Positions 4,646 through 32,428 of a stretch of 64,000 bases of DNA are shown piece by piece; the stretch's first letter is position 1; each line of letters opens with the position of its first letter. The DNA lies in contig JAOINB010000002.1 in the NCBI GenBank assembly GCA_028139135.1, positions 1 to 64,000 of the forward strand. The letters are read 5' to 3'. The DNA comes from Betaproteobacteria bacterium. GTDB taxonomy: Bacteria > Pseudomonadota > Gammaproteobacteria > Burkholderiales > Burkholderiaceae_A. Under the pieces are notes generated by a model that saw only the letters and a program-made list of their open reading frames with translations, made no database searches and was not told where the DNA came from. The position numbers were made by a program, and so were the translations under genes.

Positions 4646-5827
4646 CTAAGACTTAAGAAAAACAATTCTTATCATAATTACGAGAGTTATAATCGAGCTA
4701 ATCATCGGAAGTGCAAATTTGCCAGTCTCAAGAAAAATACGGAAGAAGAAATAACCTAGCTGTAAACATAGTATTACATTAAATGCTTTTAATCCAAAAC
4801 CGCTACGTGTAACTAGTAATATCAAGTACGTAATCCATGTAAGACCTGCAAAAAGGCCAGTGTAGTAATCCAAATCATTAATCGATATCTGATTGTGAAA
4901 ATACCCTCTGTCTGCTACATAGAACAATATGGCTAAAAGCGCCATGTGAATATAACGTTCATATTTTTCTAAAGGAATAAAGTTGTTTACATTAATTAAT
5001 CTCTTCACAGAAACGGTGTCTGACGAAATTAAGGGTACAGGCGTGGGCACTGAACCACCACTATTCTCAGAAATTTCCCGAATGTGGTCTTTAATTTTTT
5101 CGATCTTCTTTTTAGTTATTGTATCGTCATATATATTTCTCATCCCATAAATCGACTTATCGAGATTATATTTTTTTATTTCCGTAGCATTTGAAGCAAA
5201 TAATTCTTCCAGAGCAAACGAAACATTATGAAATATTACAGATAATGGCGATTGTATTCTTTCAACATTTAAATTCTCAGCCCAGTAGTTTTCATAGTTT
5301 TGTCTAGATACTTCTATAATCTCGTTAAAATTTTCCGGAAAATTCTTGTTGAAAAACTTGAAAAACTTATTCCAGTCCGCGCTAATTGCATCTGCAAAAA
5401 CTTTATGTTGTTTATCAAATCTTGGCAATATCCAGAGTGGTTTTTGGAGCTTAAAATTAGAACTTGTCGATACAGTAAAATCTATAACATATACGCGAGA
5501 TCCTTTTCCTAATTCATTATCTTTAGATGTAAGGTTACGAAGCGCTATGTCATAATGTAAAATTCCTAATTCATAAATAAAGTAAACCGCTTGAATCAAA
5601 TCTAGTGAAATAACTAATTTATTTTGAAATGATAGAACATTCCTCTGATCGTAGAGATTTTCTCCAACAAATTCCATCGTTATTAGTTTCTCTTTCGCGG
5701 AGCCCTTCAATAAAACAGGAACAGGAGCATTGCGTTGGTTTAGATACGTAAGTATTTGTATTTCTCTAAAATAGGAATATGAATTATCAAAACATTTCTC
5801 GAAATTCACCTCATTCATTTTTTTCAA
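4646..5827 (-). CDS. Protein kinase-like protein with short N-lobe and C-terminal TM helices
   Basis: HYDIALRN catalytic-loop motif, VIDFTVS in DFG position, several C-terminal hydrophobic segments; overlaps the PP2C ORF. Confidence 0.75.
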   Translation of the reverse strand: MKKMNEVNFEKCFDNSYSYFREIQILTYLNQRNAPVPVLLKGSAKEKLITMEFVGENLYDQRNVLSFQNKLVISLDLIQAVYFIYELGILHYDIALRNLTSKDNELGKGSRVYVIDFTVSTSSNFKLQKPLWILPRFDKQHKVFADAISADWNKFFKFFNKNFPENFNEIIEVSRQNYENYWAENLNVERIQSPLSVIFHNVSFALEELFASNATEIKKYNLDKSIYGMRNIYDDTITKKKIEKIKDHIREISENSGGSVPTPVPLISSDTVSVKRLINVNNFIPLEKYERYIHMALLAILFYVADRGYFHNQISINDLDYYTGLFAGLTWITYLILLVTRSGFGLKAFNVILCLQLGYFFFRIFLETGKFALPMISSIITLVIMIRIVFLKS

Positions 5828-6503
5828 TAAAGACGAGACATATGGACTTATCGTCTTTACTTCCTCTATCTTCGGATATGCCCAGTAAGGAATAAACTAT
5901 ATCTTGTAAATTAGTTTGATCAACTTTTTCTGAAATATTTTTATCCAATAAATGTGTTATGTCGCTATTTTTTATGAAATCACCGACTCCGTCTGACATA
6001 AGAAAAACGCAGGTCATATGGTCCTTTTTAAATCTGTGATAATGTACCAACTCAAAAATATCGGATCCAATAAGCTGCCAAGGATAGCCCTTGTAATCGA
6101 CATCCCTAGGTATACTAATGGTTTCTTCCCAACCCCCACCTAATTTTTGTATAAACACCTTGCAGTAACTATCTCCAATACTGATTATCTCGTATGAGTC
6201 GTGTAAAATATTTAAGCTTAGTAGTGTTGATGCTCCAGGGTTTTTTTGCGATGCATAAGCCTCATGTATGTCCATAACTATTTTTGATATCGCATGCTCT
6301 CTATCAATAGTCTCTGAGTCCAGAAAACTAACTTTTTCTGAGAATAAATGGGCTAACTCTGTAGCTAATTTTCCGCTACTTTCACAAGAATTTGCGCCAT
6401 CACATAAAGTAAAAATGTCGGCTACCTTAGCAAAGGCATCGAAACATTCATATTTAGTTTTCCCCCAATTAATTGCAGCCGCATATTCGTATGTCGTTTT
6501 CAT
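5811..6503 (-). CDS. PP2C-family serine/threonine phosphatase
   Basis: Motifs FTLCDGANSCESSG, GASTLLSLNI, SIGDSYCKV, FLMSDGVGDF, KDDKSI. Confidence 0.85.
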   Translation of the reverse strand: MKTTYEYAAAINWGKTKYECFDAFAKVADIFTLCDGANSCESSGKLATELAHLFSEKVSFLDSETIDREHAISKIVMDIHEAYASQKNPGASTLLSLNILHDSYEIISIGDSYCKVFIQKLGGGWEETISIPRDVDYKGYPWQLIGSDIFELVHYHRFKKDHMTCVFLMSDGVGDFIKNSDITHLLDKNISEKVDQTNLQDIVYSLLGISEDRGSKDDKSICLVFIEKNE

Positions 6504-7486
6504 TAAACTACTGTTGGACGTGGTGTTTTATCTGCAACAGCTCTCCCTTCGTGGGAAAACGGTTGGATTTCCAAAACCGGAAATTCGGCAGGATTCACAT
6601 TTGCTGTTAACGGCCTGGAATTCTCAGGGGGGACACCTAAATAGAGACGTTCTCCACTCCTCTTTATTGAATAATTTTTACCGTGCTCTAGAATTTCACC
6701 TTCTCCATTCCTACATGTTAAAGTTGCCTCATCGGGGACGATGTAGAACATTTTATCTAAAATTGAGTAAATAAAAATCTGATGCCTTGATACATACTTC
6801 GCTCTGATGTATATTGGGGTGATTCCGAAGTCAATACAGGCATTATCTGGGTTTTTTCCAATAAGCGTCGGTAATGTTACATCTTCAGACCTATGTCCAT
6901 CTTTATCGCTGATTAATAGCTTCACAACAACTTCATTTTTTATTTTATTAAGCTCAGACTTAGCATTGATATTTAAATGACTATCACCTTTTCTGTAACT
7001 CTTTTTTGGATTACCCAAATTAGCATGACTTGAAAAAAGAATCTTCCTGCCCCTAATAGAGATCAAATACTTCTCATCTTCCGATTTTTCCTCTAAACTA
7101 CTGACATCGATTTTAAAAATTGGAACAAACTCATCATCTATAATAACTTTCGCCCCACGATCAGAAAAGTATTCTTTTTGTAAGAAAGATTTACAAAATA
7201 CTTTGCGGAAATCTGGATTTATATCCTCATGCACCCTAAAGAATTCTTCAAGGGTGCGGGCTACCTCAATATCATTTGGAACAAATGTAAGAGACTGTAA
7301 AGGAAAATAAGATTCTTCTAGTACACTTTTCATGTATTTTCCCTCTATCTTATTTACAGCATTAGTTATAGCGCTCGTTGAAGAAGCCTTTAACTCCACC
7401 AGAAGTGTGTCTGCAAAGTTATCGGTATTATTTGAAGATAATATTTTTTCGTAACTTACAAATATTTTTTTGAACCAATTAAACAT
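6503..7486 (-). CDS. FHA-domain protein
   Basis: C-terminal LIGKNPDNACIDF...YVSRHQIFIYS FHA-like core. Confidence 0.75.
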   Translation of the reverse strand: MFNWFKKIFVSYEKILSSNNTDNFADTLLVELKASSTSAITNAVNKIEGKYMKSVLEESYFPLQSLTFVPNDIEVARTLEEFFRVHEDINPDFRKVFCKSFLQKEYFSDRGAKVIIDDEFVPIFKIDVSSLEEKSEDEKYLISIRGRKILFSSHANLGNPKKSYRKGDSHLNINAKSELNKIKNEVVVKLLISDKDGHRSEDVTLPTLIGKNPDNACIDFGITPIYIRAKYVSRHQIFIYSILDKMFYIVPDEATLTCRNGEGEILEHGKNYSIKRSGERLYLGVPPENSRPLTANVNPAEFPVLEIQPFSHEGRAVADKTPRPTVV

Positions 7487-7790
7487 ATCTATCCACTTTT
7501 GACGCGACTCTAATTATTTCAAAAAATTCTTTCTTGTCTTCCGATTGGGAATTTTTCATTTTGACAATTGTAACCTCTAACAAATATTTATTAAAATCTT
7601 CTATTTCATTTATTTGATCATAGAAAATCTCTTTGAATTCTATATTTGAGATTTTACTGTAAATACTCTCAGAAATATTCACCTTCAATGATTCTTTATT
7701 TTCAAGTCTTTTTTTTAACTCAATAACAAACGCTAATAAACACGCTTTAGCATTCATGTTTTCATCCGAATATTCGTATAGTGTCAGCAT
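7479..7790 (-). CDS. Hypothetical protein within SEDS/PBP/FHA module
   Basis: 103-aa ORF overlapping the FHA ORF start, co-directional. Confidence 0.6.
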   Translation of the reverse strand: MLTLYEYSDENMNAKACLLAFVIELKKRLENKESLKVNISESIYSKISNIEFKEIFYDQINEIEDFNKYLLEVTIVKMKNSQSEDKKEFFEIIRVASKVDRYV

Positions 7791-7814
7791 CCTAAAATAA
7801 AAAACCGGATCGCA

Positions 7815-9848
7815 TTAATCAAAAAAAATATATTTGAGTAATTTCATGTGTATATCAGCCGCTCTATTTGTGACATCAGAGGTTCCTTTTTCAGATACAA
7901 TTACTCCTATTGCAACGCTTTTATAGTCGTGTATTTTAATATTACCGTCAACTAGGTCTGCCAATTGTTTGATATTTGTAAGCCCTCCAAACAGAGTCTT
8001 GCCCTTATGGTTTTTGTCTTGAAAACTCACTGTGCCGGTCTTACCTTTAACTGGGCAAGTTTTTCCACATAGTTTATCAAATGTTCTAGCAAATGCGCTA
8101 CTAGCAGTTCCGGGGCCCTTCCAATCGGCTGTTTCGGGTAAAAGTGTTTTTTCTAAACCATTTAGAACTATTTGTGCAGCCTTAGAATCTTCCTCAGGGA
8201 GAAAATTCTCTTTTTTATATATTGGTGTCTGGTTATTATTCTTTTTTAATAAAAATGGTAATTTAGGGTACATATTGTTTTTTAATTGAGACAAATTTGC
8301 AATCATTGATGCAACGCCCAAGGCACTAACTCTAGAGTTTCCTCCTCCTATAGAGGTCTGTATTATTTGAGAAGTATTCCCTAACCTACGATCGTTACCA
8401 ACAACCGACTCATTAGAGTCATCCCGATACTTATTGTATCCGTCCCATGAAAGAAATTCTGCAATACCTCGTTCATTAAGATAAAGACTATCTTGAGTAG
8501 GCAAATATCCTAGAAACGGAGAAATATATGTGTCTAATTCATGCCCATCCGCAATAATTGAAACCCTTCCGCAGTTAAGATCAAATACTTTATAAAATTC
8601 CTCAGCTATTCCAAAAACTGAATTATTTGTGCAAGCAGTCGAAAATCCAAGCATGTTAGCAAAATAACTGGTATGCACCAACGTCATACATGTTTTTTTT
8701 TCGACTAAACCATCACAAATTGCTGCTCTTTCCCACCATTCATTTCTTTTTCCTGATAAATTCTCATTACTACCAGAGGTTTTTAATTGATTAGTCAACT
8801 CAAAAGAATCAACTTTTCCCTCAGAGGCAATGCCTAATGCAAAGAGTATTTTAGAAATTGATGCTGGCGGAGACCTAACAATTAATGCTGCCAGATCTCC
8901 TAAACGATCCATACCATTTTCTGAACAAAAGGTACCAAAACATTTAATTCCTAATATACTACTGTTTGTTGGATTAATCAGAACAATAGATAATCCCTCT
9001 AACCTATCAAAGCTGAAATTTTGTGATTTGCAAAGTTCTCTTCCCTCAAAACATTCTTCAAGAAAATTTAAAGATGTTTGAATCTTGGGATCTAAGGTTA
9101 AAATATAATCAAAATCTTCGTATCCCACCTTCTGCAATATGTTCTTGTTTACTTTCTTGATTCTGATAGTTTCTCTTAAACGCATCGCATTATCAATCAA
9201 ATTGTCTAAACCTGGAAAGTTATAAGCCAAAGAAATATTTTCTTTTTCGATAATGCACCTTTTTACGGGACCTGCCAAATAAACTAACTCTTCAGAGAAT
9301 AATTTATGATAAATACATTGTCCCCTATCTTGCCAATCTAAATTTTCAGTTAAAAATGTTTTGACAATCTTTCTTGTGTCTAATTCCTTACCTGTAACTC
9401 TAAGATTGATACGATTAATGATATCAAGATCTTGTATTATTTTTATACATTCACTTCGAGCAAATGGATGATAATATCTTCGTATGGAATCAATAAATTT
9501 TTCTTCCGTTATCGAGGAATACGTTTTTAAAGTTTTTATTGAGGAAGTGTAAATAATGTTTTTTACTCGTTGACTGCATGAGAATTGATCTATGAAATGA
9601 ATAAGACCTTTTGTTTTTGTGTTGCTCTTGTCCTGAAGATTCATCTTATGATCAAGAGAGGATTCACTTATACTCCAATCTTTTATTAATACGGAAACTC
9701 GCTCTACTTTATCTTTCGGAATATACGAGACGGATGAAAACTGCTCAGTTTGCAGAGACTTTGAGATGAGAATAGTGCTAACTGCTATAAACGTGCACAA
9801 GACGACTACAATGAGAAACCTGTTGACTAATACTTTGCTATAAATCAT
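7815..9848 (-). CDS. Penicillin-binding protein, transpeptidase domain (monofunctional bPBP-like)
   Basis: SISK (SxxK) and KGKTGT (KTG) motifs, N-terminal TM. ATG at 9848 overlaps the upstream stop (ATGA), so 9848 is preferred over ORF-track start 9983. Confidence 0.8.
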   Translation of the reverse strand: MIYSKVLVNRFLIVVVLCTFIAVSTILISKSLQTEQFSSVSYIPKDKVERVSVLIKDWSISESSLDHKMNLQDKSNTKTKGLIHFIDQFSCSQRVKNIIYTSSIKTLKTYSSITEEKFIDSIRRYYHPFARSECIKIIQDLDIINRINLRVTGKELDTRKIVKTFLTENLDWQDRGQCIYHKLFSEELVYLAGPVKRCIIEKENISLAYNFPGLDNLIDNAMRLRETIRIKKVNKNILQKVGYEDFDYILTLDPKIQTSLNFLEECFEGRELCKSQNFSFDRLEGLSIVLINPTNSSILGIKCFGTFCSENGMDRLGDLAALIVRSPPASISKILFALGIASEGKVDSFELTNQLKTSGSNENLSGKRNEWWERAAICDGLVEKKTCMTLVHTSYFANMLGFSTACTNNSVFGIAEEFYKVFDLNCGRVSIIADGHELDTYISPFLGYLPTQDSLYLNERGIAEFLSWDGYNKYRDDSNESVVGNDRRLGNTSQIIQTSIGGGNSRVSALGVASMIANLSQLKNNMYPKLPFLLKKNNNQTPIYKKENFLPEEDSKAAQIVLNGLEKTLLPETADWKGPGTASSAFARTFDKLCGKTCPVKGKTGTVSFQDKNHKGKTLFGGLTNIKQLADLVDGNIKIHDYKSVAIGVIVSEKGTSDVTNRAADIHMKLLKYIFFD

Positions 9849-11857
9849 TTGGAATAGCCTACTTTTTTTATCTTCATATTCATTCCTACGAAAAGGCCAA
9901 ATGTAAGACAGGGTAATATCATCGCGGTGAATCCAATACTCATGAAGGGAAGACTTATACCTGACAAAGGAATCAATCTCCAATTTCCAAAGGTACTTAA
10001 TATTATTTGAATAATACTACTGCATGACATATAAAAAATAAGTATGGACGGCAATCTATTTTCTTTCTCTCCTGTTAGGAATATATAAAATGATTTAGTA
10101 GCAACAAAGCAAAACAGTGCTGTTAAGACTGTAAGTAAAAATAGAGCTCCTCCAAACCCAAATACCTTCTCAATAAGTAGGGGCATATAATCGCTCAAAA
10201 CCTGCAAAGGAAGACATACCCCATGATCATTACACCATGAGTTTCCAACCAAAATATCATCTGACTCTGAATTCGTGAAATTGATCAATCTTGCAAAATC
10301 ACTAACCGATGCGTTCATTGGCTCCAACATTAACTCTATTCGTTGGTTAATTTTTTCAGTGAATGATCCAATCAAGCCAAGTATAACCATGATTACAATC
10401 CAAAAGAAAAAAAACCGTAGACCAAACACAATAGAGACTAAAATCATCACTAAAACTAGCGTAATAAATACCCCACCAATATCATTAAAGATAAATAAAC
10501 TCAAAAAAATAAAGGTAGAAGTCATTAGTACAAAATATAAGAATCCTCTAATAACGTATGAGTTTAGGTATTCTGATACGATAATTTTCTTGTTTGAATC
10601 CTTTTCCTTGAAAAGGATTTTTTTGAAATTAATTTTATTAAATGCATAATTACAATATTTTTGTATTAAAAATATCTCTCTAGAATAGCGACAAGTCATA
10701 AAAGAAGAAAATAATATTACAAATACTTTCATGATCTCAGACCCCATTGCAGCCGAAAAACTTGAATAACCGGCAACAACGAAAACAATACCGAAAAAAA
10801 CTAACTTTTCCTGATGCAGATGCATTCGTCCGATAAGAGATCTAAAGTAATCAAAATAAAATACTGAAATAAACAATAATGAATATCCAACCATACTAAT
10901 AACAATTTGTCGTTCAAATATATCTACAAACGGACTAATAATAAATTTAGAAGAAGTGAGTCCAAAATTAATACTTGCATCGAGTCCGATGTATAGTGAT
11001 ATACATATTGAGGAACATAATGATACAAAGTAGATGAGCATTGTTTTTGATTTATACTCGATAAAAAAGTAAACTATAAACATTAAAGGAAAAATGGCAA
11101 CCAACGATAGGTATTTTTTAAATACTGTAATTCTTTCATGAGTGGCTGCAAAATTATCTCCTTGCTCAAGTATCGTTCCCACACCCCATGAGACTTTTTT
11201 AAACTCACCAGTAACTTGTGAGTATATATTTCCATCTAATTCCAGTGATACTAAAAATAATTTTTTATATTGATTTTTCCTTTCTTTTGGATCGTCCAAA
11301 AGATCCTCTCTAATCTTTTGGAATTTTTCTACTAAGGAATTTGTGCGGTTTGTAAGTATTAATATAAGGAAATGATAATGTTCATTTTGATCAGCATTTT
11401 CTACCAAATTGTTTTTAAGGGAAATAAGAAACTCTAACTTTTCCTTCTTTTTTTGGTAAACCTGATCCCAAACTATATCATAAGGTTCCCCGGGATGGGT
11501 CTTCTCATCCTGATTCGAGAATATACTTGTAAAATAACTTTTGTACTTTCCATAACCGAATTCTTCAAAATTTCTGGTAATAAGTTCCCCAGTGAGGCAA
11601 TTAATTTCCTCTGCTTTGACTTGCCGGAAGGAAGAACATAAATTTTCGCTATCAGATATGTCATTTGATTCTTCAAATTTATTTTCGTTAGGATGATTAT
11701 ATTTTTGTTGAATGACTGTTTTCTGGTATGCTGTACTTAAAACATCAAAACGGTGCTCATTTCCTGTAAAGTCAGTATTTATCAAATAAATAATAACTAA
11801 TATCAACAATAAAAGAGAAATAGTATTTATATTCTTTATATTTAAAAAGCTTCGCAT
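9845..11857 (-). CDS. SEDS family (FtsW/RodA/SpoVE-like) protein with large N-terminal extracytoplasmic domain
   Basis: Polytopic; LSDYMPLLIEKVFGFGGALFLL matches the SEDS DFIF..EE.GF.G region; NWRLIPLSGISLPFMSIGFTAMI matches the conserved C-terminal P-x-P-F-x-S-x-G loop. Confidence 0.8.
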   Translation of the reverse strand: MRSFLNIKNINTISLLLLILVIIYLINTDFTGNEHRFDVLSTAYQKTVIQQKYNHPNENKFEESNDISDSENLCSSFRQVKAEEINCLTGELITRNFEEFGYGKYKSYFTSIFSNQDEKTHPGEPYDIVWDQVYQKKKEKLEFLISLKNNLVENADQNEHYHFLILILTNRTNSLVEKFQKIREDLLDDPKERKNQYKKLFLVSLELDGNIYSQVTGEFKKVSWGVGTILEQGDNFAATHERITVFKKYLSLVAIFPLMFIVYFFIEYKSKTMLIYFVSLCSSICISLYIGLDASINFGLTSSKFIISPFVDIFERQIVISMVGYSLLFISVFYFDYFRSLIGRMHLHQEKLVFFGIVFVVAGYSSFSAAMGSEIMKVFVILFSSFMTCRYSREIFLIQKYCNYAFNKINFKKILFKEKDSNKKIIVSEYLNSYVIRGFLYFVLMTSTFIFLSLFIFNDIGGVFITLVLVMILVSIVFGLRFFFFWIVIMVILGLIGSFTEKINQRIELMLEPMNASVSDFARLINFTNSESDDILVGNSWCNDHGVCLPLQVLSDYMPLLIEKVFGFGGALFLLTVLTALFCFVATKSFYIFLTGEKENRLPSILIFYMSCSSIIQIILSTFGNWRLIPLSGISLPFMSIGFTAMILPCLTFGLFVGMNMKIKKVGYSK

Positions 11858-12227: not shown

Positions 12228-13373
12228 TCATTTTTTCTCTAAACGGGAAACAATGCCCTTTAGGGTTCCGTCAAATTTTCCAACGTCGTCAATAACTTCG
12301 TCAAGCGTCATAGTTCCCCACATCGAAACTCGTCGCAAAACATAAGAAGAAGGACTATGCGGCTCTATCGCTCTTAGTTTCTCCGATAAAATCCCAATGC
12401 TCTCATAAATCTGATTCCGAGAATCTTCCTTGTCACCTGACGACAATTTATCTTTTTCCGTTTCTAACCCAGGTCTTTCTCCTGGCTTCTCATTTTCTAT
12501 CTTGTTAGTGTTTTCTTGGACATTTTTATCAAAAGAGGTTTTCACTACTTTTGAATTATCTTTTCTAGTCTTATCATCATTAATTTTTTTGGCGCGAAGC
12601 AATCCCTGTTTAAATGATGAAACCTCTTCAATAAAGAGAGTTATTTTGGAAAATGAAACTGACTCTTTCTTAAGTTTTTTTTCTAAGAATAAATCTAACT
12701 TTTCTATAATAGCTATCGCCTCCAACGCATTGGACTCTAGCTCCTTTAAGTAATTCATATCTTCCTTGCTAAGACCTATTTCCGATATGCTCTTTTTGGA
12801 TTTTTTATTCTCTAAATTATTAGGAAGAGTAATTGATTTAGAATCACCGTTCTTCTCTATGAGATGGTCCAGATACGTAAGGCTCCATTCCCTTTGTTCA
12901 TTTCTCGGAAGAAAGACTATTTTGTCTTTAAAAAAATCAGGCCCTTTTGTTACCAACCATTTGTAAGGAGATATTCTTGCATCTGAATCGGAAATTTTAT
13001 ATTTTGGCCATAATGTGTCCCAGTATCTTTCAGTAAGTTTATACATCAGCAATAACCCACATCGTAATCCGTTCATACCGTAAAGATATGTCCATCCCTG
13101 TATTATGAATATACAGATTTCCAGGTCCTTGGTTTCCTTTTTTAATAAATCCTCAGCAATATCAGTCACCCGTTTCCAATCAGTTTGCTTCAAAGGTCTT
13201 TCCCATTCTCCCATTGGAAGATTTGGATCGTCCGCATTCTTTTCAGCCACTATTGCTAAATATTTATTTTCGTATCTGATCCATCTTCCAGAAGGATTTT
13301 CTTTTTCAATCGGTTCTAATAAATCCAATAGGTTTTCTGCCGTAATCGAAATCTTCTCACTCTCGGATGTCAT
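12228..13373 (-). CDS. tssA: T6SS protein TssA (ImpA N-terminal family)
   Basis: NPSGRWIRYENKY...EWERPLKQTDWKRVTDIAEDLLKKETKDLEICIFIIQGW; ATGA overlap with tssM. Confidence 0.9.
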   Translation of the reverse strand: MTSESEKISITAENLLDLLEPIEKENPSGRWIRYENKYLAIVAEKNADDPNLPMGEWERPLKQTDWKRVTDIAEDLLKKETKDLEICIFIIQGWTYLYGMNGLRCGLLLMYKLTERYWDTLWPKYKISDSDARISPYKWLVTKGPDFFKDKIVFLPRNEQREWSLTYLDHLIEKNGDSKSITLPNNLENKKSKKSISEIGLSKEDMNYLKELESNALEAIAIIEKLDLFLEKKLKKESVSFSKITLFIEEVSSFKQGLLRAKKINDDKTRKDNSKVVKTSFDKNVQENTNKIENEKPGERPGLETEKDKLSSGDKEDSRNQIYESIGILSEKLRAIEPHSPSSYVLRRVSMWGTMTLDEVIDDVGKFDGTLKGIVSRLEKK

Positions 13374-16300
13374 AGTTTCGGAATCTCTTCAGGGTACAAA
13401 GATGGCATCGTTAGGGTCTTCCCATCACTCTTTCTTTTTAAAATAATCTTCAAGAAAACCCTTGCATTAGATAGAGTTTTACTTTTCGAATTGATTTCGT
13501 CAAAAATTTGTACAGGAAATTCAAACCTTAATACTTCGCCAATCGTTTTTTGATCTTCTGTAATTTTATGCAGATTAATCATGTCAAACAAACTCCAATT
13601 ACCAGAAAACTTAAAAACCGAAGTCTTTCCGGAAACTCGGTAAAAAGGATTTTGTTTTTCTCGATATGGAGAAATATCAGTATCCGCAGCAAACCTCATC
13701 TCAAATTTAACAGGATCACCATACTTCCATGTTAATTTTTTATTTTCGTCAAAAAGACTTATTGAACTCTCCCCAGAATAAAAAACCCAAGATATGATCC
13801 TACTCCCGTATAGCTCTTTATCCTTATTTTCACGAAACACTACCTCGATATCATAACCCGTTTCGTCTTCTTTGCTTTTCATCAAATACGGAGAGAACAA
13901 CGCCTCTAATTGATTCAAATCAGAGTAAAAAGTATTAAGTCTATCAGTCAAGACCTTTTTTTTAATCAGAGGAAGGACCTTCTCTCTTTGTGGAAATTTT
14001 GAGAAAGTATTAATTACCTCAAATAAACTAGCGTCTTCCAATGCCTGATAATCCGTTACTGAGATATTATTATAAACTTTATTTGCAAATGGCTTCTTCT
14101 TCAGCAGCAAGCTTTCAAGGTCGATTGATGCAGAAGCCCATCTCTCCTCAATACTATAACGCCTTAAGTGATCACAACGGTTAGAAATTTCAGAGAAAAC
14201 TAAATTGTACTTAATACTAAAGAAGTTATTAGCTGGCTTATCTATTCCTTCTTTATCTAGTATGTCTCTACAGTTTTCAATCGAAATATTTTTATAAAGA
14301 ATCTCCAAAAAATCCTGCAGTCGTATCATAGCACTACCAGGTTTATTATTTGTATAATCAACAACCTCAGACTGCAATGATCCCCAGAAATTTTTTTCCT
14401 TCTTGTAAAACTGTGGAGGGAGCACATACAAGTAAGCCTTTGCTAAGTCACTTATTTTTTCTAGCTCGGTCATTTGAAATGAAAATAATTCCTTAAGACC
14501 CATAAAAGACTTTACAGAATAAGACGATTCAATCAGGTCTATCCCCCCATCCCAATTTTTTACCTTTTCAAAAGACGGAGAGAAGAAATCCTTTTTATTA
14601 AAGTAGTCAGTTAATATTCCTAGTCTACTGGCCGCATCAGAAACTAGAATATTATCAAGCAAAATAGCTTCATCATTATGATTCATATCTTCTACTAAAT
14701 CTCTAGCTTTCTTTACAAGAGCGATTGTTTCTGCATATTTTTTGGGATCCTCATTCTGTATATCAAAGAAGGGTATGTATTCCTCAACTTTTGTTTCTGA
14801 GTATGCTTTCTCTAATATAGATAAGGTCTGAAATACGACATTTTTATTTATTAGATTTTCAATTACTTCTCTTTCATATATCTCAAAGGATGGCATGCTT
14901 GATACAAGCTCTGGATCCCTAATTTCTTTTAAAGATTCAATCTTCTTAACTATATTTTCGTCCCAGAAATTTATTGAATCATTCAGTATGAAAGCTGTTT
15001 TAATTTCATCCAAGCTAATCTGTAGCATGTCATTTCTTGCAGAAGCATCATTCAATATAAGCTTTTTTAATCTCTTTATATCAGCATTCTGACCCATCGA
15101 CTGCATAAAAACAATTATCTCTTTTAACTTAGATAGGGACTTGATGTACTGATAGAGGTTTTTGTTTGCAGAATCAAAATCTATAACATATGAATCCTCG
15201 CCCGTACTATTAATTGACCTTCCCACTAAAGATAATAGCTTTTTCTCAGTTTGACTATCGATACTCTCTAAAATCCGTTTTCTATACTCTTTGGGAAAAA
15301 GCATTAAGTCCTTGTCCAAATATTTCTCTCTAGATTCTTTTAGAGCTAATGCATTGTCTAATGAATCAAGATTCCATTTAATAAAAGGCCTGTCTCCATC
15401 AATCTTGAATTGATAATCATTAGAGATTGACATGATTGGATCAGATAACAAAACCTCAATTGCTTTCTTTAAATTTTTTCTCTTTTCAGAAGTGGTAAGT
15501 ATTTTTTTTCCATCTTCATTACGACCTATCTCAATACCCTCCTCTGTTCCTCTTTCAGAAACTAAAGATTCATAGTTCACTCTTAATTTGGCAAAATCTT
15601 TAGCCACCTTAAGCTCGATATTAGATGATAAACTAGGACCTAGAAGAGAATTGTTTTCCACTTCCTGTAAAAACTCTTTATATCTATCTCCAAAATCTAG
15701 CTGCTCCTGAACCATCCATAAGCCTCCACCCTTTGCTAAAAGTATTTCCTGGTCTTTGATGTTAAGGAGAATATCGTTAAGAAGATTAATGATTTCCTCG
15801 CCGCTAAGTTTTATGTAATCTGCCCTTAAGAACTTTTCCTGTGCCTCAACTATTTTTCTTTCATCCTCAAGTAACGAGTTATAGGCAAATAACTCATTGG
15901 TTAAGCTAATAATTCCCTCGGTAAGAGAACATATTAAAGCTTTAGAAAAAATATTCGGATCTATAACCTCTGCATTTCTATTAACAGCCTTACTGAATAA
16001 TGTGGTTACCCCCGATAAATCTCCGTATAAGTCCGCTTGTAACGCAAAGCTTGCTAAGTATCGGAAGTCATCATTACTGGTTCTCCTAGCATATCGCAAA
16101 CGATTCATTGCTAGAACCGCTCTTTCTATTTCTTTTGCTCTAACTAAAAACTTTTCCAATGATATAAAATTTGGAGAATCAGAAAGTATTAGTGATCGAC
16201 CTTCAGCAGGAGACAACTTACCGTTAGCAGTTGCTGGAGCTTTGCAAGCATTATCCCTGTATACCAGGTTGCCAGTTACAGTATCATAAGGTAAGCCTGT

Positions 16301-17764
16301 TAAGTTAGCTGTCTTGAGCTCGAGCGACCTCCTAAAAGTATTGATAACCAATTCCCCAAATCCTTCCTTTACTCTAACATTAGCTCTTAAAAATACATCA
16401 TCGAAAATGGGCAATGACCCTGGCATAAAAACTGTACCATATTCATTTAACTTTCCTTTGAATCGTATCCTATCTAACTCCTCTAGTCCGATAATCAAAG
16501 CTACAGCTGTATTCCTATACCAATCGAAGTCTAGAGTATTACCTAACTTACTTGCCTCATACCTCTGCTTAGCATCCTCATTTAATCCTGCAATTCCCTC
16601 CGTTAGACGTGTTACGATTTGGTGCCCCTTTATTGCGGAAAAAACCAGCCCAATCGACCAGATAGAAATAAACGAGAGAAATATCCACTTCAAGAATCTG
16701 TTAGGGGCTGAGTTTTTAAATCTTTGATTGTTTGATGGCCTAAGTAGTCCAAACTCGCCAATAATTTTTTTCTCGAATAGATCTTTACAAAAGTTCGGTT
16801 TTTCATGGTTTGTCACCATGTATATTCCTCGAAAGAAGAATGGTTCATAGAACCCACTAGACTGTACGAGCGCTTCCGTATAGTCCATCAGCCCTTCTTG
16901 TAAATGTTTAATTTCTATGGGTAAAAGGAACTCACTTACCCTATTTTTTTTCTTTTTGGTGGCGGTTGCTACATCTACCACCAAACTAGCAACTGTTTCA
17001 CTAATTCCGTTTATTGCCTGAACAATCCACTCTTTCAAAAATGTTGAAGAGAGATCATTCGGATTCGACCATCCTAGAATACTATCTCGCATAGATTCGG
17101 GTAAGCTCTTCGAAAAAGATTCAAAGCCGGGAATATCCTCGCATCCGGAGACAATTAGATAAATCGGAACCCTGACTGAAAAACTGTTTTGCACCATCCA
17201 TATTCTCTGGCTAGCGGCTTTAGCAAGATTCAGTAATTGTACTTTGGCTGATTTGTCGTTAGCAGACTTAGAAAGTAATTTAGCGGGAACACTTACAACA
17301 ATAGAATCGATAGGTCTTCTAGGTCTATACTGATTACAAAGCTTTAGAAATTCTGTCCATTTAATGTCCTCTTTTACTGATTCATCTTCCTCTCTTAATG
17401 CACTTGATGAAAATTCCAGCACTAATCCCTTACTGAAATAATGCCAGCAAAAACTCTTACTGCCATCAAGATTCTTTGAAGATCTAGATCGCATCAGATT
17501 AATTGATTCAATCGGTATACGATCATCCTCTTTCCCTTCATTTAATAATATAATCCACGGATAATCATATTTCTTCGCCCCGGGAAGTAACGTTCTTTCT
17601 GATGCTCTAACCCCCTTTTTAAAGATCTCCCTAATCTTTTTTTTGCTAAGAGTAAAATCTATTTTCTTTTCTTGTTTTTTTAAGCCAAAAAAGATAGATA
17701 GCGAAAAAATAATCAAAGATATAAAGATAATTAAAAATAACCAGAAAAAAGATAAGTTACTCAT
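13370..17764 (-). CDS. tssM: T6SS membrane protein TssM (IcmF-like)
   Basis: 1464 aa, N-terminal TMs, IcmF-like domain (PIDSIVVSVPAKLL...RIWMVQNSFSVRVPIYLIVSGCEDIPGF). Confidence 0.92.
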   Translation of the reverse strand: MSNLSFFWLFLIIFISLIIFSLSIFFGLKKQEKKIDFTLSKKKIREIFKKGVRASERTLLPGAKKYDYPWIILLNEGKEDDRIPIESINLMRSRSSKNLDGSKSFCWHYFSKGLVLEFSSSALREEDESVKEDIKWTEFLKLCNQYRPRRPIDSIVVSVPAKLLSKSANDKSAKVQLLNLAKAASQRIWMVQNSFSVRVPIYLIVSGCEDIPGFESFSKSLPESMRDSILGWSNPNDLSSTFLKEWIVQAINGISETVASLVVDVATATKKKKNRVSEFLLPIEIKHLQEGLMDYTEALVQSSGFYEPFFFRGIYMVTNHEKPNFCKDLFEKKIIGEFGLLRPSNNQRFKNSAPNRFLKWIFLSFISIWSIGLVFSAIKGHQIVTRLTEGIAGLNEDAKQRYEASKLGNTLDFDWYRNTAVALIIGLEELDRIRFKGKLNEYGTVFMPGSLPIFDDVFLRANVRVKEGFGELVINTFRRSLELKTANLTGLPYDTVTGNLVYRDNACKAPATANGKLSPAEGRSLILSDSPNFISLEKFLVRAKEIERAVLAMNRLRYARRTSNDDFRYLASFALQADLYGDLSGVTTLFSKAVNRNAEVIDPNIFSKALICSLTEGIISLTNELFAYNSLLEDERKIVEAQEKFLRADYIKLSGEEIINLLNDILLNIKDQEILLAKGGGLWMVQEQLDFGDRYKEFLQEVENNSLLGPSLSSNIELKVAKDFAKLRVNYESLVSERGTEEGIEIGRNEDGKKILTTSEKRKNLKKAIEVLLSDPIMSISNDYQFKIDGDRPFIKWNLDSLDNALALKESREKYLDKDLMLFPKEYRKRILESIDSQTEKKLLSLVGRSINSTGEDSYVIDFDSANKNLYQYIKSLSKLKEIIVFMQSMGQNADIKRLKKLILNDASARNDMLQISLDEIKTAFILNDSINFWDENIVKKIESLKEIRDPELVSSMPSFEIYEREVIENLINKNVVFQTLSILEKAYSETKVEEYIPFFDIQNEDPKKYAETIALVKKARDLVEDMNHNDEAILLDNILVSDAASRLGILTDYFNKKDFFSPSFEKVKNWDGGIDLIESSYSVKSFMGLKELFSFQMTELEKISDLAKAYLYVLPPQFYKKEKNFWGSLQSEVVDYTNNKPGSAMIRLQDFLEILYKNISIENCRDILDKEGIDKPANNFFSIKYNLVFSEISNRCDHLRRYSIEERWASASIDLESLLLKKKPFANKVYNNISVTDYQALEDASLFEVINTFSKFPQREKVLPLIKKKVLTDRLNTFYSDLNQLEALFSPYLMKSKEDETGYDIEVVFRENKDKELYGSRIISWVFYSGESSISLFDENKKLTWKYGDPVKFEMRFAADTDISPYREKQNPFYRVSGKTSVFKFSGNWSLFDMINLHKITEDQKTIGEVLRFEFPVQIFDEINSKSKTLSNARVFLKIILKRKSDGKTLTMPSLYPEEIPKL

Positions 17765-18738
17765 TACAATTCTTTCAATTTTCTTTTGGTATTTTTTACA
17801 GAGATAAGGCTTGCTAATTGCTGATGTTTTGATTTTTTAATCAGAACAGTCTTCTGGGAATTTAAAATGTCACGCAGTGGCTTTGTCATTACTACATATG
17901 TAATCTGGGAGATAATTAAGAGCAAGGCAATTATTACCAATGAAATGAATACTGGCTTATTAACTCGAAAAAATTTGACGGGCTGTAAGTTAGACAATAT
18001 TCTCTCATAATGCACGCTATCAATCTTCTGCTCTCCATTTACTTCCGATTTTTTATTATCTAATCCTGGTTCTTTTCTGTTGATATAAACATAAAGTGAA
18101 CGTATGTATTCCTCAAGTTTATTTTCCGAATCCCTACCTCTGTATTGACCTTCGAATCCGATAATTAAAATTTGCAAATACAATTTGGCTAGTTCGATCA
18201 TCTGTTCAGGTTTCGAATTCAATACTTCGTCTATCCGATCAAATATTTTTTCTCCAGCTTCACTCGTCAAAAATATTTTTTCTTCAATTAGATAGTTAAT
18301 AAATTCTTTTTGCCCAGACCATGGTTCACTTAAAAATATCTCATCTGCCAATGCTGCGTAAATATACTTGACTTCCTCGTATCTTTCTTTCTCAGATGGA
18401 CTAGCAATTTTTAAAAAATCGATTTGTTTTAACTCCAGGATTCTACACACTCTATCTCGAACCTGTAATGCTAATAACATCTGTGGATTTTCTTCCACTG
18501 GGCTTGCATCAGATTTTAGAGCAATATTTTTTTTGTTAATATGATTGTTATGAATGGATAATTCAATCTCGCTGATTATAGAAAAAATTTGTTTAACAAA
18601 TTCTCTGAGTTGCGTTATAGCAAAACTGGATTGGCTGGTATCCTCACGTAGGCTTTTGACCGATTCGTGAATTGTGAAAGGGCTAGTCATTTTTGGTTCC
18701 GAATATGTATCGTTTGGGTCTTTCATTTCGTTCGTCAC
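17764..18738 (-). CDS. tssL: T6SS protein TssL (DotU family)
   Basis: IYAALADEIFLSEPWSG...ILIIGFEGQYRG motifs and one C-terminal TM. Confidence 0.9.
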   Translation of the reverse strand: MTNEMKDPNDTYSEPKMTSPFTIHESVKSLREDTSQSSFAITQLREFVKQIFSIISEIELSIHNNHINKKNIALKSDASPVEENPQMLLALQVRDRVCRILELKQIDFLKIASPSEKERYEEVKYIYAALADEIFLSEPWSGQKEFINYLIEEKIFLTSEAGEKIFDRIDEVLNSKPEQMIELAKLYLQILIIGFEGQYRGRDSENKLEEYIRSLYVYINRKEPGLDNKKSEVNGEQKIDSVHYERILSNLQPVKFFRVNKPVFISLVIIALLLIISQITYVVMTKPLRDILNSQKTVLIKKSKHQQLASLISVKNTKRKLKEL

Positions 18739-18743
18739 TTATA

Positions 18744-20063
18744 TTACTTTTCTCCTTGAACAAAAAGAATCATCCCTTGAGGAACCATATGAACAGGATT
18801 ACTAGAGGATGGGACCACAGTTATGCGATATTCCGAATTTTCTAGATCTTTTGGACAAATTACTTCAAATAACTCTATACCCGGGATAGCCTTCAGTTTC
18901 AGTTTAGAATCTGTCTGGATCCGTCTTCTTTTCATTCCGAGAATTCTTTTTTCTTTACACTTCATAACCTCGTTTGATTTTTCAATTATTATGGATTTGA
19001 TCCATGCTTCCACAGCTTCTTTAGGTATTCCCTTAACGCCAAAAACTAATGATTTGTCTACCCATTCTGGCCTTAAAACTATTTCAAAACTGTCTCCTAC
19101 TCTTGTAAACGGAACTTCATGGTAACTTTGACTTACACCTTCTAGGAATTTTAATAAATTTGTAAATAATGATGAGAAAGTACTATGCAAGTCTTCGTGG
19201 AGATACTTAGGAGGTAGATTAGGAATCCCTCCAAATTTCAACTGGCTTAGGGGTCCCAAAATTTCACACAGCACAAGATATAGTTGACGAGGTGAAACAT
19301 CCTTCATTTGCATCAAACTTTCTAGTTTTGGTAAAGATAATGCCATAAGACCTAATCTTTGAATTGTGGAGACTTGATCTGGATCAGAGAAATCGCCCTT
19401 TTGGGAATCAATTTGTCTGGCACAAAAAGTAGCCTTTGCTCTTAACTCCTCCGACAAATGCTTAAGCTCTTCTCTTAGAAATTTAGAGACACCAATATCG
19501 ATCAATGGGGGAATATAATCACCAACCTTGATAACTCCATCTACATTGTTTAAAACACATAATTTGAATGAGGAGTATGACCCAGGAGGTCTTTCGTTTG
19601 CAAATATCTTAAGGTTATAGGTTAATCTAGGTATATCGATAGGCTCTCCATCTTGAAAATCATCTAAAACAGGATCGCTCACTTTTTCTTCAAAACGAAA
19701 ATTTCCTTCCTTATTTTTCCTTGTTCCCAGGGGAAGGCCAATATAAATATCAATGGTCTCAGACTTTTTAACATTATCAGGTAGATCCTCTAGATTAATT
19801 TCCAGAGATGACGATTCTAATTTTCCATTCCACTTCAGAGCAGTACCGTCAGGCATAAATACTTCTAACGTCAATATTCGAAACTTACCGCCAGCTAGCA
19901 TTGCACTATCGATTTCAAAAGCCTTTATGCCCCATGCATCACAATGTCTACCCATAGAATGAAACGCTATTAGTTGATCTACCCTTGATGATTCTGTTTG
20001 AAAATGTTGTGGCGATAACAACATTCCTTCATGCCATTGGATTCTGTCTAAAATATTCATCAA
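18744..20063 (-). CDS. tssK: T6SS baseplate protein TssK
   Basis: RIQWHEGMLLSPQHFQ N-terminal signature. Confidence 0.95.
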   Translation of the reverse strand: MMNILDRIQWHEGMLLSPQHFQTESSRVDQLIAFHSMGRHCDAWGIKAFEIDSAMLAGGKFRILTLEVFMPDGTALKWNGKLESSSLEINLEDLPDNVKKSETIDIYIGLPLGTRKNKEGNFRFEEKVSDPVLDDFQDGEPIDIPRLTYNLKIFANERPPGSYSSFKLCVLNNVDGVIKVGDYIPPLIDIGVSKFLREELKHLSEELRAKATFCARQIDSQKGDFSDPDQVSTIQRLGLMALSLPKLESLMQMKDVSPRQLYLVLCEILGPLSQLKFGGIPNLPPKYLHEDLHSTFSSLFTNLLKFLEGVSQSYHEVPFTRVGDSFEIVLRPEWVDKSLVFGVKGIPKEAVEAWIKSIIIEKSNEVMKCKEKRILGMKRRRIQTDSKLKLKAIPGIELFEVICPKDLENSEYRITVVPSSSNPVHMVPQGMILFVQGEK

Positions 20064-20072
20064 TATTTCCTA

Positions 20073-20594
20073 TCAATTGGGTTTAATTGCATATGCGTTA
20101 AATTCATCAATATCAAAATCAATAACCACTATTCCTTCAAGATTATCAATTCTCGCTTTGTAATCTCCATCATTAAAATATTTTGCAAAGACCAATGCAC
20201 CAAAAACTCGTTCATCTTTGAAAAATTCATTGGGTACTGCTACACCATCTCCTGGAGCTAATTCCCAACTTCTTACAATGATCTCCTCAGAGAATGTCTT
20301 CAATAACGTATTTTTCTGTTCAAACCATTTTTTTGAATCTAGTTCTAAAATTTTTTTCAAAAGCGCATCATTTTTAATCAATGTAATATCAATCGCGATA
20401 GGATAATCCATATTTGCATTTTCTCTTATCAAAATATCTAGGGATTTCCAATACAGTTTTTCACCTGGTGGGAAAACATAGTTTTTCGCCGATTTATAGG
20501 CTTTTATTGGCGCATCTAGAACCCCACAACTTGTTAAAAAAGTGACTACGAATAAAAAAGATAAATTCCTGAAAACTTTTTTTAAGGTAATCAT
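20073..20594 (-). CDS. tssJ: T6SS lipoprotein TssJ
   Basis: Lipobox FLTSCG; IAIDITLIKND; position between tssK and upstream genes. Confidence 0.8.
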   Translation of the reverse strand: MITLKKVFRNLSFLFVVTFLTSCGVLDAPIKAYKSAKNYVFPPGEKLYWKSLDILIRENANMDYPIAIDITLIKNDALLKKILELDSKKWFEQKNTLLKTFSEEIIVRSWELAPGDGVAVPNEFFKDERVFGALVFAKYFNDGDYKARIDNLEGIVVIDFDIDEFNAYAIKPN

Positions 20595-20794
20595 TTCTTA
20601 CCTTCAGTCGACTGATCAAGCTGTGTATTTTTTTTCTTATCCAAAGATATTCTTTGATTTTTTTCCTTAATGGTCTCGATGGCATGTTCTTTTCCTAACT
20701 CATAGACAACTATCAATGAAACTATAAAAAAAATTAAAAAGCTCAAAAGGGCTATTATTGTTAATCGAGTAGTAAAGGAAAAAGTTATATTCAT
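20591..20794 (-). CDS. Small single-TM protein in T6SS operon
   Basis: 67 aa with TM (LTIIALLSFLIFFIVSLIVVYEL); 4-nt overlap with tssJ. Confidence 0.55.
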   Translation of the reverse strand: MNITFSFTTRLTIIALLSFLIFFIVSLIVVYELGKEHAIETIKEKNQRISLDKKKNTQLDQSTEGKK

Positions 20795-20805
20795 TTTATT
20801 ACCTG

Positions 20806-21180
20806 TTATTCCTTGTCGACGGTAAATTGACTAGGAGCTTCTACACTTATTGAACCAGTCCACAAACACTGAAGTTTAGATTTCTGAGTAACAGAGGGTA
20901 CGCCCTTTATTTTTACTTTTGTAGCAGTATCACTCCAGGGGAAAGGAGTGACTGGAATACATGGCATAGGCGATCCTCCGGCAGCTGCTACCGTAGGGTT
21001 AGCTGAGGTTGTACACATTCCAAAGGGGATTATATTTAGAAAAGGAACAGTGTCGAGCGCATTTCCAGCAGGCAAACCTGTCGTGGTCACACCATTTATA
21101 GGAAGCACTATAAACGGAGTCGGTACTGTACCACATGAACATTTTAAAAGACTGAGCGCACAAATAGCTTTAGGCATCAT
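20806..21180 (-). CDS. PAAR-like (DUF4280-type) T6SS spike-tip protein
   Basis: Cys-containing N-terminus, NIIPFGMCTTSANPTVAAAGG, PCIPVT, W-x-x-x pattern; ATGA overlap with MORN gene, downstream of vgrG. Confidence 0.75.
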   Translation of the reverse strand: MMPKAICALSLLKCSCGTVPTPFIVLPINGVTTTGLPAGNALDTVPFLNIIPFGMCTTSANPTVAAAGGSPMPCIPVTPFPWSDTATKVKIKGVPSVTQKSKLQCLWTGSISVEAPSQFTVDKE

Positions 21181-21782
21181 TCCCCCCGAAACACTTTAGT
21201 TAATGTACCAACCATATTTTTTTCTTTTTTATCTGAGATTCTTTTTCCTCGCTCATCGTACAATCTCGATTCTCCAATAATTTTTCCTTTACTGTAATCC
21301 GTTTCCTCCATGACGTTTCCATTTAACCAAAACCGAACCAATACTCCGTCCAGTTGACCTCGCAAATAAGTAGACCTTTGTATAAGAATCCCATCGGCTG
21401 TAAAATCTTCAGCAAGTCCCTCTAATAATCCATCCTTGTAATTCGCTTCTCTGACGCACTGACCCTTATTCCAGAATCTAGAAACCCCTTCACGTAAATC
21501 TTTCTCGAAGTTAATAATCGCGGATAACTCTCCAGTTTCATCAAATAGCTCTGTCGGTCCATCTAAATACCCCTGTTTAAAACTTCTTTTAGAACTGAGC
21601 TCTCCCTTAATATAAGTCTCTAAAAACCCATCTAGATTGCCTTCTTTAAAATTAACTCTTTGTTCAAGATTCCCTTCCATATCATAAAATTCACAAATAC
21701 CATCAAGTTTAGATCCTTTCATATGGGACCTTTGTTTTATCTGCTTGTTACTGTAAAACTCTTCTATTACTCTCGTCTCCAT
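21177..21782 (-). CDS. MORN-repeat-like protein linked to VgrG/PAAR
   Basis: Tandem ~20-23-residue repeats (G.LDG..E.Y...G.L....NFK.G.LDG...). Confidence 0.8.
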   Translation of the reverse strand: METRVIEEFYSNKQIKQRSHMKGSKLDGICEFYDMEGNLEQRVNFKEGNLDGFLETYIKGELSSKRSFKQGYLDGPTELFDETGELSAIINFEKDLREGVSRFWNKGQCVREANYKDGLLEGLAEDFTADGILIQRSTYLRGQLDGVLVRFWLNGNVMEETDYSKGKIIGESRLYDERGKRISDKKEKNMVGTLTKVFRGE

Positions 21783-21783
21783 A

Positions 21784-23898: not shown

Positions 23899-24934
23899 CT
23901 AACCTAAACTCCAACATTACACTATCCGGATTGGTCTTCGTTAAATCGCCGAGCCATGTATTCCAGCCCAGTCTCATCGTTGATTGTCTCGATAATTCAC
24001 AATTTTTTATTTCTTGCTGACCAAGATATAATTTTAGTAATACAGAAATATTTCGTGGTAAAAATCTGTAAATTAGCTTGACTAGTTCTGCATACTTCTT
24101 TCCAGTGGGAAGTAGAGATAAAAACGTTCTCATATCTAACTTTTTTATTTCAATTAAAAGACCGGAGGAAATATTCCAGGACTTTTTTCCTAATACGGCA
24201 TTTTTTCCTAATACGGCATTTTCATATCCTGTGCTTAAACTACTTCGCTGCAAAGCAATATCCGACCAAGAGCCGTTAAACTCACAGCAGGTAATATTAT
24301 TCAAATTCATTCTGTTTTTAATTAAGGTTAGGAGATTAGACGAAGATCGCGGAGCGCCTCCAAAAATACCTGCATGCCGCAACCATTGAACATCAGAAAA
24401 TGTTTTGAACTCCGTCGAAGACCTTCCAAGGGATGCCAGGCTATCAACAATCTTTTCAATGCTTGTCTGAGAACCCTTCTTCCAGGTCAAGGATGGATCG
24501 CGCTTCTTTTTTCCTAAGTAAAAAAGAGTAACTAAACGATGCAAAAAAATATCCAGGAAATCAGATGTAGCACAATCTTTTTTTCTCTCTCTATCAAGAA
24601 TTAATTCACAAAAGGTTTGAGGTAAAGGTCCCGAATTTGAAGTAAAAGAAAAAAAAGGTGTAGCTAAAGTAATGAGGTTTTTTTTTGTCTTGTCATATTG
24701 AATTGAGTAAACATCACTAGACTCGAAATTTAACGTGGTAACACCTTTAATATGAATGTGCTTTCTAACCTCTTCTTCATCTAAATTTTTCGTTTTGTAA
24801 CTTGCTATCCTTTCAAGTAAATAAATAGCACGCAAGAGGTCATACTTCTGAGAATTAGTCATCAAATCCTCTAATCGTAATTTTACATGTTTTTCCTCCA
24901 TTGATTTTCGATCATTAATTATCTCCTGGTTCAT
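23882..24934 (-). CDS. tssG: T6SS baseplate protein TssG
   Basis: Position between tssF and vgrG; FLDIFLHRLVTLFYLGKKKRDP...AGIFGGAPRSSSNLLTLIKNRMNL; RLGWNTWLG near C-terminus. Confidence 0.9.
   Translation of the reverse strand: MNQEIINDRKSMEEKHVKLRLEDLMTNSQKYDLLRAIYLLERIASYKTKNLDEEEVRKHIHIKGVTTLNFESSDVYSIQYDKTKKNLITLATPFFSFTSNSGPLPQTFCELILDRERKKDCATSDFLDIFLHRLVTLFYLGKKKRDPSLTWKKGSQTSIEKIVDSLASLGRSSTEFKTFSDVQWLRHAGIFGGAPRSSSNLLTLIKNRMNLNNITCCEFNGSWSDIALQRSSLSTGYENAVLGKNAVLGKKSWNISSGLLIEIKKLDMRTFLSLLPTGKKYAELVKLIYRFLPRNISVLLKLYLGQQEIKNCELSRQSTMRLGWNTWLGDLTKTNPDSVMLEFRLDENRL
24183..24218. repeat. Perfect tandem duplication of an 18-bp unit within tssG
   Basis: ttttttcctaatacggca x2; gives NAVLGKNAVLGK. 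Confidence 0.9.
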
Positions 24935-24935
24935 T

Positions 24936-27180: not shown

Positions 27181-27207
27181 TTTCTATCCCCAGCATTAAG
27201 CTAATCT

Positions 27208-27702: not shown

Positions 27703-27760
27703 GGCTTATACTCCACTAATGTAAGTTGTTTTAAAAGTTTTTATGTTTTGATGATGCATT

Positions 27761-29236: not shown

Positions 29237-29265
29237 TTTTTTACCCCTAATAATTCAATTAATAT

Positions 29266-30625: not shown

Positions 30626-30675
30626 AATTAAGGATGCATTTTTGTCAACACTTAAGTATTGTTAATTGGTGCCTC

Positions 30676-32427: not shown

Positions 32428-32428
32428 A

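What the first reader, a model, noticed from the sequence alone, without database searches (positions are those of the whole stretch)
4646..11857. T6SS-linked SEDS + PBP + FHA + PP2C + kinase module (candidate peptidoglycan-synthesis/phospho-signalling system)
Immediately after tssA, co-directional genes encode a FtsW/RodA-like SEDS protein, a transpeptidase PBP, a 103-aa protein, an FHA protein, a PP2C phosphatase and a kinase-like membrane protein. Most neighbours overlap or nearly abut. Kinase/phosphatase/FHA trios (PpkA-PppA-Fha) are established T6SS post-translational regulators, but a dedicated SEDS-bPBP pair is not a canonical T6SS component. The gene set resembles the actinobacterial pstP-rodA-pbpA-pknA/B-fha operon. 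Hypothesis: a cell-wall synthase under phospho-control that remodels or repairs peptidoglycan at T6SS assembly or attack sites, or that couples wall state to firing. Similar neighbourhoods may already exist unremarked in other proteobacteria.
Basis: partly seen in the sequence, partly recalled or inferred. Interest (0 to 1): 0.88.

Follow-up and report, generated by a model that had tools for sequence, protein, structure and literature searches.

The report
Phospho-regulated cell-wall synthase gene set
Next to a type VI secretion gene cluster, this marine bacterium carries a conserved six-gene set that looks like its own cell-wall-building enzyme pair with a built-in protein-phosphorylation switch; related bacteria carry the same set without any detectable secretion system, so it is probably a separate, undescribed machine rather than part of the weapon.

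Summary
Six co-directional genes (window 11857 to 4646, minus strand) encode a divergent SEDS protein, a class B PBP, a ~100-aa protein, an FHA protein, a PP2C phosphatase and an N-lobe-truncated kinase with C-terminal membrane helices. Gene ends overlap or lie within 24 bp, and all six are under purifying selection. They are not housekeeping: ftsW, ftsI, PBP1A and mreD-mrdA genes exist elsewhere in the genome. The module SEDS form a clade apart from FtsW and RodA, and the SEDS catalytic Asp and PBP SxxK are conserved.

The T6SS interpretation is weak. The module sits beside T6SS genes only in this genus. In a sister genus it lies on a different contig from the T6SS. In six further genomes, five of them Comamonadaceae-named MAGs, it is a stand-alone six-gene operon. 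Nine of 20 module-bearing genomes have no detectable T6SS. Within the home family it does co-occur with T6SS (11/14 against 2/12, p = 0.005, uncorrected for phylogeny).

Best reading: an independent SEDS-bPBP synthase with its own kinase/phosphatase/FHA control, resembling the actinobacterial pstP-rodA-pbpA-pknA/B-fha locus in gene content. Its cellular role is untested.

The parts
9845..11857 (-). Divergent SEDS (FtsW/RodA/SpoVE superfamily) protein, 670 aa: TM1, ~210-aa extracytoplasmic insert with conserved cysteines, then a SEDS core; D556 aligns with the FtsW catalytic Asp
   Evidence: PF01098 2.3e-7; hhalign prob 96.7%; TM scan; separate clade 100/100
7815..9848 (-). Class B penicillin-binding protein, 677 aa: one N-terminal TM, Cys-rich periplasmic domain, transpeptidase domain with S330xxK333 and K603TGT; SxN motif not canonical
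   Evidence: AlphaFold model and Foldseek hits to PBP3/PBP2; SxxK aligned with FtsI; start codon
7479..7790 (-). Conserved ~100-aa protein of unknown function, no TM segment predicted
   Evidence: homologues in the same position after PBP in genus g1, genus g2 and Comamonadaceae-type genomes
6503..7486 (-). FHA protein, 327 aa: conserved N-terminal alpha/beta domain, C-terminal FHA domain, C-terminal invariant TPxP (usually TPRP) tail
   Evidence: AlphaFold and Foldseek; alignment A10
5811..6503 (-). PP2C-type Ser/Thr phosphatase, 230 aa
   Evidence: PF13672 2.8e-9
4646..5827 (-). Protein kinase lacking the Gly-rich loop, catalytic-loop and DFG-position Asp/Asn conserved, invariant TPxP linker, C-terminal TM helices
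   Evidence: only PF00069 match found in this genome
11876..12211 (+). 111-aa lipoprotein gene on the opposite strand between tssA and SEDS, conserved in the genus; shows the module is not simply continuous with the tss genes
12228..29823 (-). Neighbouring T6SS cluster (tssA, M, L, K, vgrG, G, F, E, hcp, tssC, B and others); context, not shown to belong to the module

Best explanation
The six genes form a self-contained peptidoglycan-synthase system. The SEDS protein polymerises lipid II and the single-TM class B PBP crosslinks the strands, as RodA-PBP2 and FtsW-FtsI do. The membrane-anchored kinase phosphorylates Thr residues, plausibly the TPxP sites in its own juxtamembrane linker and in the FHA protein's C-terminal tail. 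The FHA domain reads such phospho-Thr and docks regulator to synthase, and the PP2C phosphatase resets it. The unit is evolutionarily independent of the T6SS and in this genus merely lies next to it, or has been secondarily coupled to it. Shown by computation: gene set, folds, catalytic-residue alignment for SEDS and PBP (SxxK, KTG), operon-like spacing, co-inheritance, purifying selection, non-housekeeping status, occurrence without T6SS. Inferred: enzymatic activity, phosphosites, FHA docking, direction of regulation.
For: Same six genes kept together in three lineages in two arrangements. SEDS, PBP and FHA trees all separate the same three groups, so the genes travel as a unit. All six genes pN/pS 0.14-0.40. 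SEDS and PBP folds and active-site motifs. FHA fold. In G000 the module kinase is the only PF00069 match, so the signalling is probably dedicated. Separate ftsW, ftsI, PBP1A and mreD-mrdA genes. Nine module genomes without TssF, eight of them also tested and negative for TssC/VipB.
Against: PBP's second motif (SxN) is not canonical; the nearest invariant Asn lies in a (K)RNEWWE block, so transpeptidase activity is not assured. The kinase lacks the Gly-rich loop. Module proteins evolve faster than FtsW (33% against 60% identity between G000 and G002), which suits an accessory or conflict-related role as well as a synthase. The genomes are uncultured MAGs and single cells; there are no functional data.
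Confidence: 0.68

Rival explanations
1. T6SS-dedicated wall synthase: SEDS-PBP rebuilds peptidoglycan at T6SS assembly or attack sites, with the kinase/PP2C/FHA trio acting as the T6SS threonine-phosphorylation pathway.
For: Next to tssA in the T6SS cluster of this genus wherever contigs allow. Family-level co-occurrence 11/14 against 2/12, Fisher p = 0.005. No other ppkA/pppA/fha gene was recognised among the T6SS-cluster genes scanned in the window. T6SS machines do use wall enzymes such as TagX (PMC10564176), and Burkholderiales T6SS use PpkA-Fha (PMC12607579).
Against: Six stand-alone operons in genomes without detectable T6SS, plus three sister-genus genomes without it. In the sister genus module and T6SS are on different contigs. 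An opposite-strand gene separates tssA from the module. The co-occurrence is not corrected for phylogeny.
Confidence: 0.17
2. Repurposed SEDS/PBP: the pair acts on another glycan, or serves as a catalytically weak lipid II or beta-lactam sensor that signals through the kinase, rather than as a bulk synthase.
For: Very long branch from FtsW/RodA, ~210-aa extracytoplasmic insert in SEDS, Cys-rich PBP periplasmic domain and non-canonical SxN, atypical kinase.
Against: Catalytic Asp, SxxK and KTG positions are conserved across all members, which a pure sensor would not need for SEDS.
Confidence: 0.12
3. Housekeeping elongasome or divisome genes displaced next to the T6SS.
For: SEDS-bPBP pairs are normally housekeeping (established knowledge).
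Against: Separate ftsW and ftsI in a dcw cluster, PBP1A and mreD-mrdA exist in the same genome; many close relatives lack the module.
Confidence: 0.02

Closest known systems
Actinobacterial pstP-rodA-pbpA-pknA-pknB-fhaA/fhaB locus (PMC6554272, PMC11898655)
   Same: SEDS, class B PBP, PP2C phosphatase, membrane kinase and FHA protein clustered together; single SEDS-bPBP pair under Ser/Thr phospho-control; FHA model resembles the FhaA FHA domain among other FHA domains.
   Different: Betaproteobacterial and accessory (housekeeping copies exist elsewhere); kinase has no Gly-rich loop and no Pfam sensor-domain match; SEDS carries a large extracytoplasmic insert; extra ~100-aa protein; FHA N-terminal domain does not match FhaA_N (PF12401).
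T6SS threonine phosphorylation pathway PpkA-PppA-Fha (PMC5995506, PMC12607579)
   Same: Kinase, PP2C phosphatase and FHA protein encoded beside T6SS genes in this genus.
   Different: No NCBIfam match of the FHA protein to any family, T6SS ones included; the trio is always joined to SEDS-PBP and occurs without T6SS.
RodA-PBP2 and FtsW-FtsI synthases
   Same: SEDS plus class B PBP fold, catalytic Asp, SxxK and KTG.
   Different: Separate, strongly diverged SEDS clade; only one RodA was in the tree.
T6SS-associated wall enzyme TagX (PMC10564176)
   Same: Peptidoglycan enzyme encoded in a T6SS locus.
   Different: Degrades peptidoglycan rather than synthesising it; a different kind of enzyme (similarity to the module proteins was not tested here).

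Membership tests
SEDS (FtsW/RodA/SpoVE) superfamily | PF01098 homology over the core TM region | tested here: met
   PF01098 above cut-off; hhalign prob 96.7% over 327 columns
SEDS (FtsW/RodA/SpoVE) superfamily | Catalytic Asp in the long extracytoplasmic loop | tested here: met
   invariant LSDY Asp (D556) aligns with E. coli FtsW HTDF Asp
FtsW or RodA orthologue | Groups inside the FtsW or RodA clade | tested here: not met
   module SEDS form one clade, 100/100, apart from nine FtsW and one RodA
Class B penicillin-binding protein | Single TM and transpeptidase fold | tested here: met
Class B penicillin-binding protein | SxxK, SxN and KTG motifs | tested here: inconclusive
   SxxK and KTGT invariant; no canonical SxN
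T6SS Fha/PpkA/PppA (threonine phosphorylation pathway) | Match to the T6SS FHA, kinase or phosphatase families | tested here: not met
   no NCBIfam T6SS match for FHA, PP2C or kinase at E <= 0.1
T6SS accessory component | Occurs only with T6SS | tested here: not met
   9 of 20 module genomes without TssF, 8 of these also without VipB; family-level association only
T6SS accessory component | Needed for T6SS activity | not testable with these tools
   needs mutants
Actinobacterial pstP-rodA-pbpA-pkn-fha locus | FhaA_N domain in the FHA protein | tested here: not met
   no PF12401 match at the module locus at E <= 10
Actinobacterial pstP-rodA-pbpA-pkn-fha locus | PASTA kinase | tested here: not met
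   no PASTA match in the kinase; C-terminal TM helices only
FHA domain protein | FHA beta-sandwich fold | tested here: met
   Foldseek to FHA domains, prob 1.00, target TM up to 0.81
Protein kinase | Conserved catalytic-loop Asp/Asn, DFG Asp and alpha-C Glu | tested here: met
   invariant E22, D93, N98, D116
Protein kinase | Gly-rich loop | tested here: not met
   proteins start at about the beta-3 position in all members

The most novel reading that the evidence does not exclude
A third kind of SEDS-bPBP peptidoglycan synthase in Gram-negative bacteria, neither elongasome nor divisome, with its own built-in kinase/phosphatase/FHA switch, present in scattered uncultured aquatic Burkholderiales-type bacteria and in one marine genus placed next to, and possibly coupled with, a type VI secretion system.
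Probability: 0.5. Interest if true: 0.75.

Novelty: new variant of a known kind. Interest (0 to 1): 0.58.

Why it matters
Phospho-controlled SEDS-PBP synthesis is best known from the essential actinobacterial locus, where kinase, phosphatase and FHA roles are hard to separate from growth. An accessory, six-gene Gram-negative version with housekeeping synthases kept apart would allow the control logic to be studied in isolation, would add a new SEDS clade, and would warn against reading every kinase/phosphatase/FHA set beside a T6SS as T6SS regulation.

Tried and rejected
Housekeeping copies: rejected. Defence system: PADLOC matches are only weak kinase/PP2C-fold matches. FhaA_N homology of the FHA N-terminal domain: not found. 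Plasmid-borne copies: none for SEDS or FHA. Weak SEDS matches in other families of the order: four checked are FtsW (L101, L106, L104) or lie in dcw clusters (L102, L104). Promoter scan around tssA-SEDS: no excess over shuffles. Sequence-profile searches of the PDB for PBP and FHA found nothing useful; folds were needed. Stable neighbours of the stand-alone operons: none informative. Literature searches for a T6SS-SEDS-FHA link found no such description in the held library. Wider search with the FHA profile: 6 of 398 genomes of the order (all in the home family), 2 of 300 in the family of G061, 1 of 399 in the phylum.

Full report
Observation. Along the set the spacings are SEDS/PBP -4 bp (ATGA overlap, using the ATG at 9848, where most relatives start), PBP/p103 +24, p103/FHA -8, FHA/PP2C -1, PP2C/KIN -17. 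Against close relatives, pN/pS is 0.21-0.25 (SEDS), 0.28-0.31 (PBP), 0.16-0.17 (p103), 0.14-0.16 (FHA), 0.14-0.18 (PP2C) and 0.32-0.40 (KIN), so all are maintained as proteins.

What the proteins are. SEDS reaches PF01098 above its cut-off. Profile-profile alignment to six FtsW/RodA proteins, including E. coli FtsW and MrdB, has probability 96.7% and places the invariant LSDY Asp (D556) on the HTDF Asp of FtsW, the known catalytic residue (the catalytic role is established knowledge). A hydropathy scan gives one TM, a ~210-residue extracytoplasmic insert with two invariant cysteines, then a SEDS-like TM core. The PBP has no Pfam hit, but its AlphaFold model (pLDDT 75, pTM 0.67) matches FtsI/PBP3 and PBP2 transpeptidases, including PBP2 from the RodA-PBP2 complex and M. 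tuberculosis PbpA. SxxK and KTGT are invariant; the SxN motif is not canonical. The FHA protein's C-terminal domain matches FHA domains, among them FhaA of M. tuberculosis; the model is good in that part but its overall pTM is low (0.41). The kinase profile finds solved protein kinases at about 2e-6 starting at the alpha-C region. Alpha-C Glu, catalytic-loop Asp and Asn and DFG Asp are invariant; the Gly-rich loop is absent in all members. An invariant TPxP motif occurs in the kinase linker and at the FHA C-terminus; that these are phosphosites is inference.

Not housekeeping. The genome (1.49 Mb, 85.6% complete) has a full ftsW followed by murG, ftsI, a PBP1A gene, and mreD followed by an mrdA cut by a contig end. 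Module SEDS form one clade (100/100) apart from nine FtsW and one RodA (RodA sampling is minimal). Between G000 and G002, FtsW is 60% identical and module SEDS 33%. The module kinase is the only PF00069 match found in G000.

Distribution. Twenty genomes with the module were found: seven in the window's genus (G000-G006), seven in a sister genus (G010, G016, G018, G022-G025), and six others (G061-G065, G679). Record titles behind them name Burkholderiaceae, Betaproteobacteria, Burkholderiales and Comamonadaceae MAGs or single cells (G679 has no name). In the window's genus the order is tssA - [lipoprotein on the other strand] - SEDS - PBP - p103 - FHA - PP2C - KIN, where contigs allow. In the sister genus SEDS-PBP is divergent from FHA-PP2C-KIN and, where a T6SS is found, lies on a different contig from it. 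In G061-G065 and G679 the six genes form one stand-alone operon (in G063 the PP2C ORF was not picked by my simple caller) with no T6SS gene nearby. SEDS, PBP and FHA trees give the same three groups, so the genes have travelled together. Sampling suggests rarity: 6 of 398 genomes of the order, 2 of 300 of the family of G061, 1 of 399 of the phylum.

Relation to T6SS. TssF is absent from G016, G018, G025, G061-G065 and G679; VipB was tested in all of these except G679 and is absent. The other eleven have T6SS genes, G003 by tssM and tssA beside the module at a contig end. Within the home family the table is module and T6SS 11, module only 3, T6SS only 2 (both on broken contigs), neither 10; Fisher p = 0.005, without phylogenetic correction. 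In the window's genus the genes on the far side of the module are syntenic too, so shared synteny is weak evidence for a functional link. I conclude the module is independent of the T6SS, with a secondary link in this family possible.

Most likely mechanism. A SEDS-bPBP pair that makes peptidoglycan locally, gated by phosphorylation: the membrane kinase, held near the synthase by its C-terminal helices, phosphorylates TPxP sites; the FHA protein binds phospho-Thr; the PP2C resets. Enzyme identities rest on fold and residue conservation; every regulatory step is inferred. When and where in the cell it acts is open.

Comparison. The closest known locus is the actinobacterial pstP-rodA-pbpA-pknA-pknB-fhaA/B cluster (PMC6554272, PMC11898655). 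The gene content matches; membership fails on the FhaA_N domain, the PASTA kinase and the taxonomic setting, so 'works like' is the fair claim. T6SS PpkA-PppA-Fha (PMC5995506, PMC12607579) shares the trio but not the SEDS-PBP pair; the FHA protein here matches no NCBIfam family. TagX (PMC10564176) is a T6SS-linked wall enzyme of opposite activity. Searches of the held open-access library found no description of this module; subscription papers are mostly outside it.

Limits. MAGs and single-cell genomes, absence calls limited by completeness, one RodA in the tree, root position of the module tree unsure, no functional data.

Noticed in passing
window 11876-12211 (+): Small lipoprotein (lipobox ...GCDQ) on the opposite strand between tssA and SEDS, conserved in the genus with a C-terminal VIGT/PYRS-like motif; could serve the T6SS or the module.
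   Followed up: partly
window 12228-36816: No ClpV-type AAA+ protein was seen among the T6SS genes examined in the window; the rest of the genome was not searched for it.
   Followed up: no
window 30634-33031: A histidine kinase (30634-32427, +) and a LuxR-type response regulator (32429-33031, -) sit beside tssB/tssC and stay there in the sister genus, a likely regulator pair for this T6SS.
   Followed up: partly
window 20806-21782: A DUF4280 protein and a MORN-repeat protein downstream of vgrG are kept in most T6SS loci of both genera of the family.
   Followed up: no
L070 (G006) and L075 (G023): The PBP reading frame is split in these two MAGs; assembly error or pseudogene not distinguished.
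   Followed up: no
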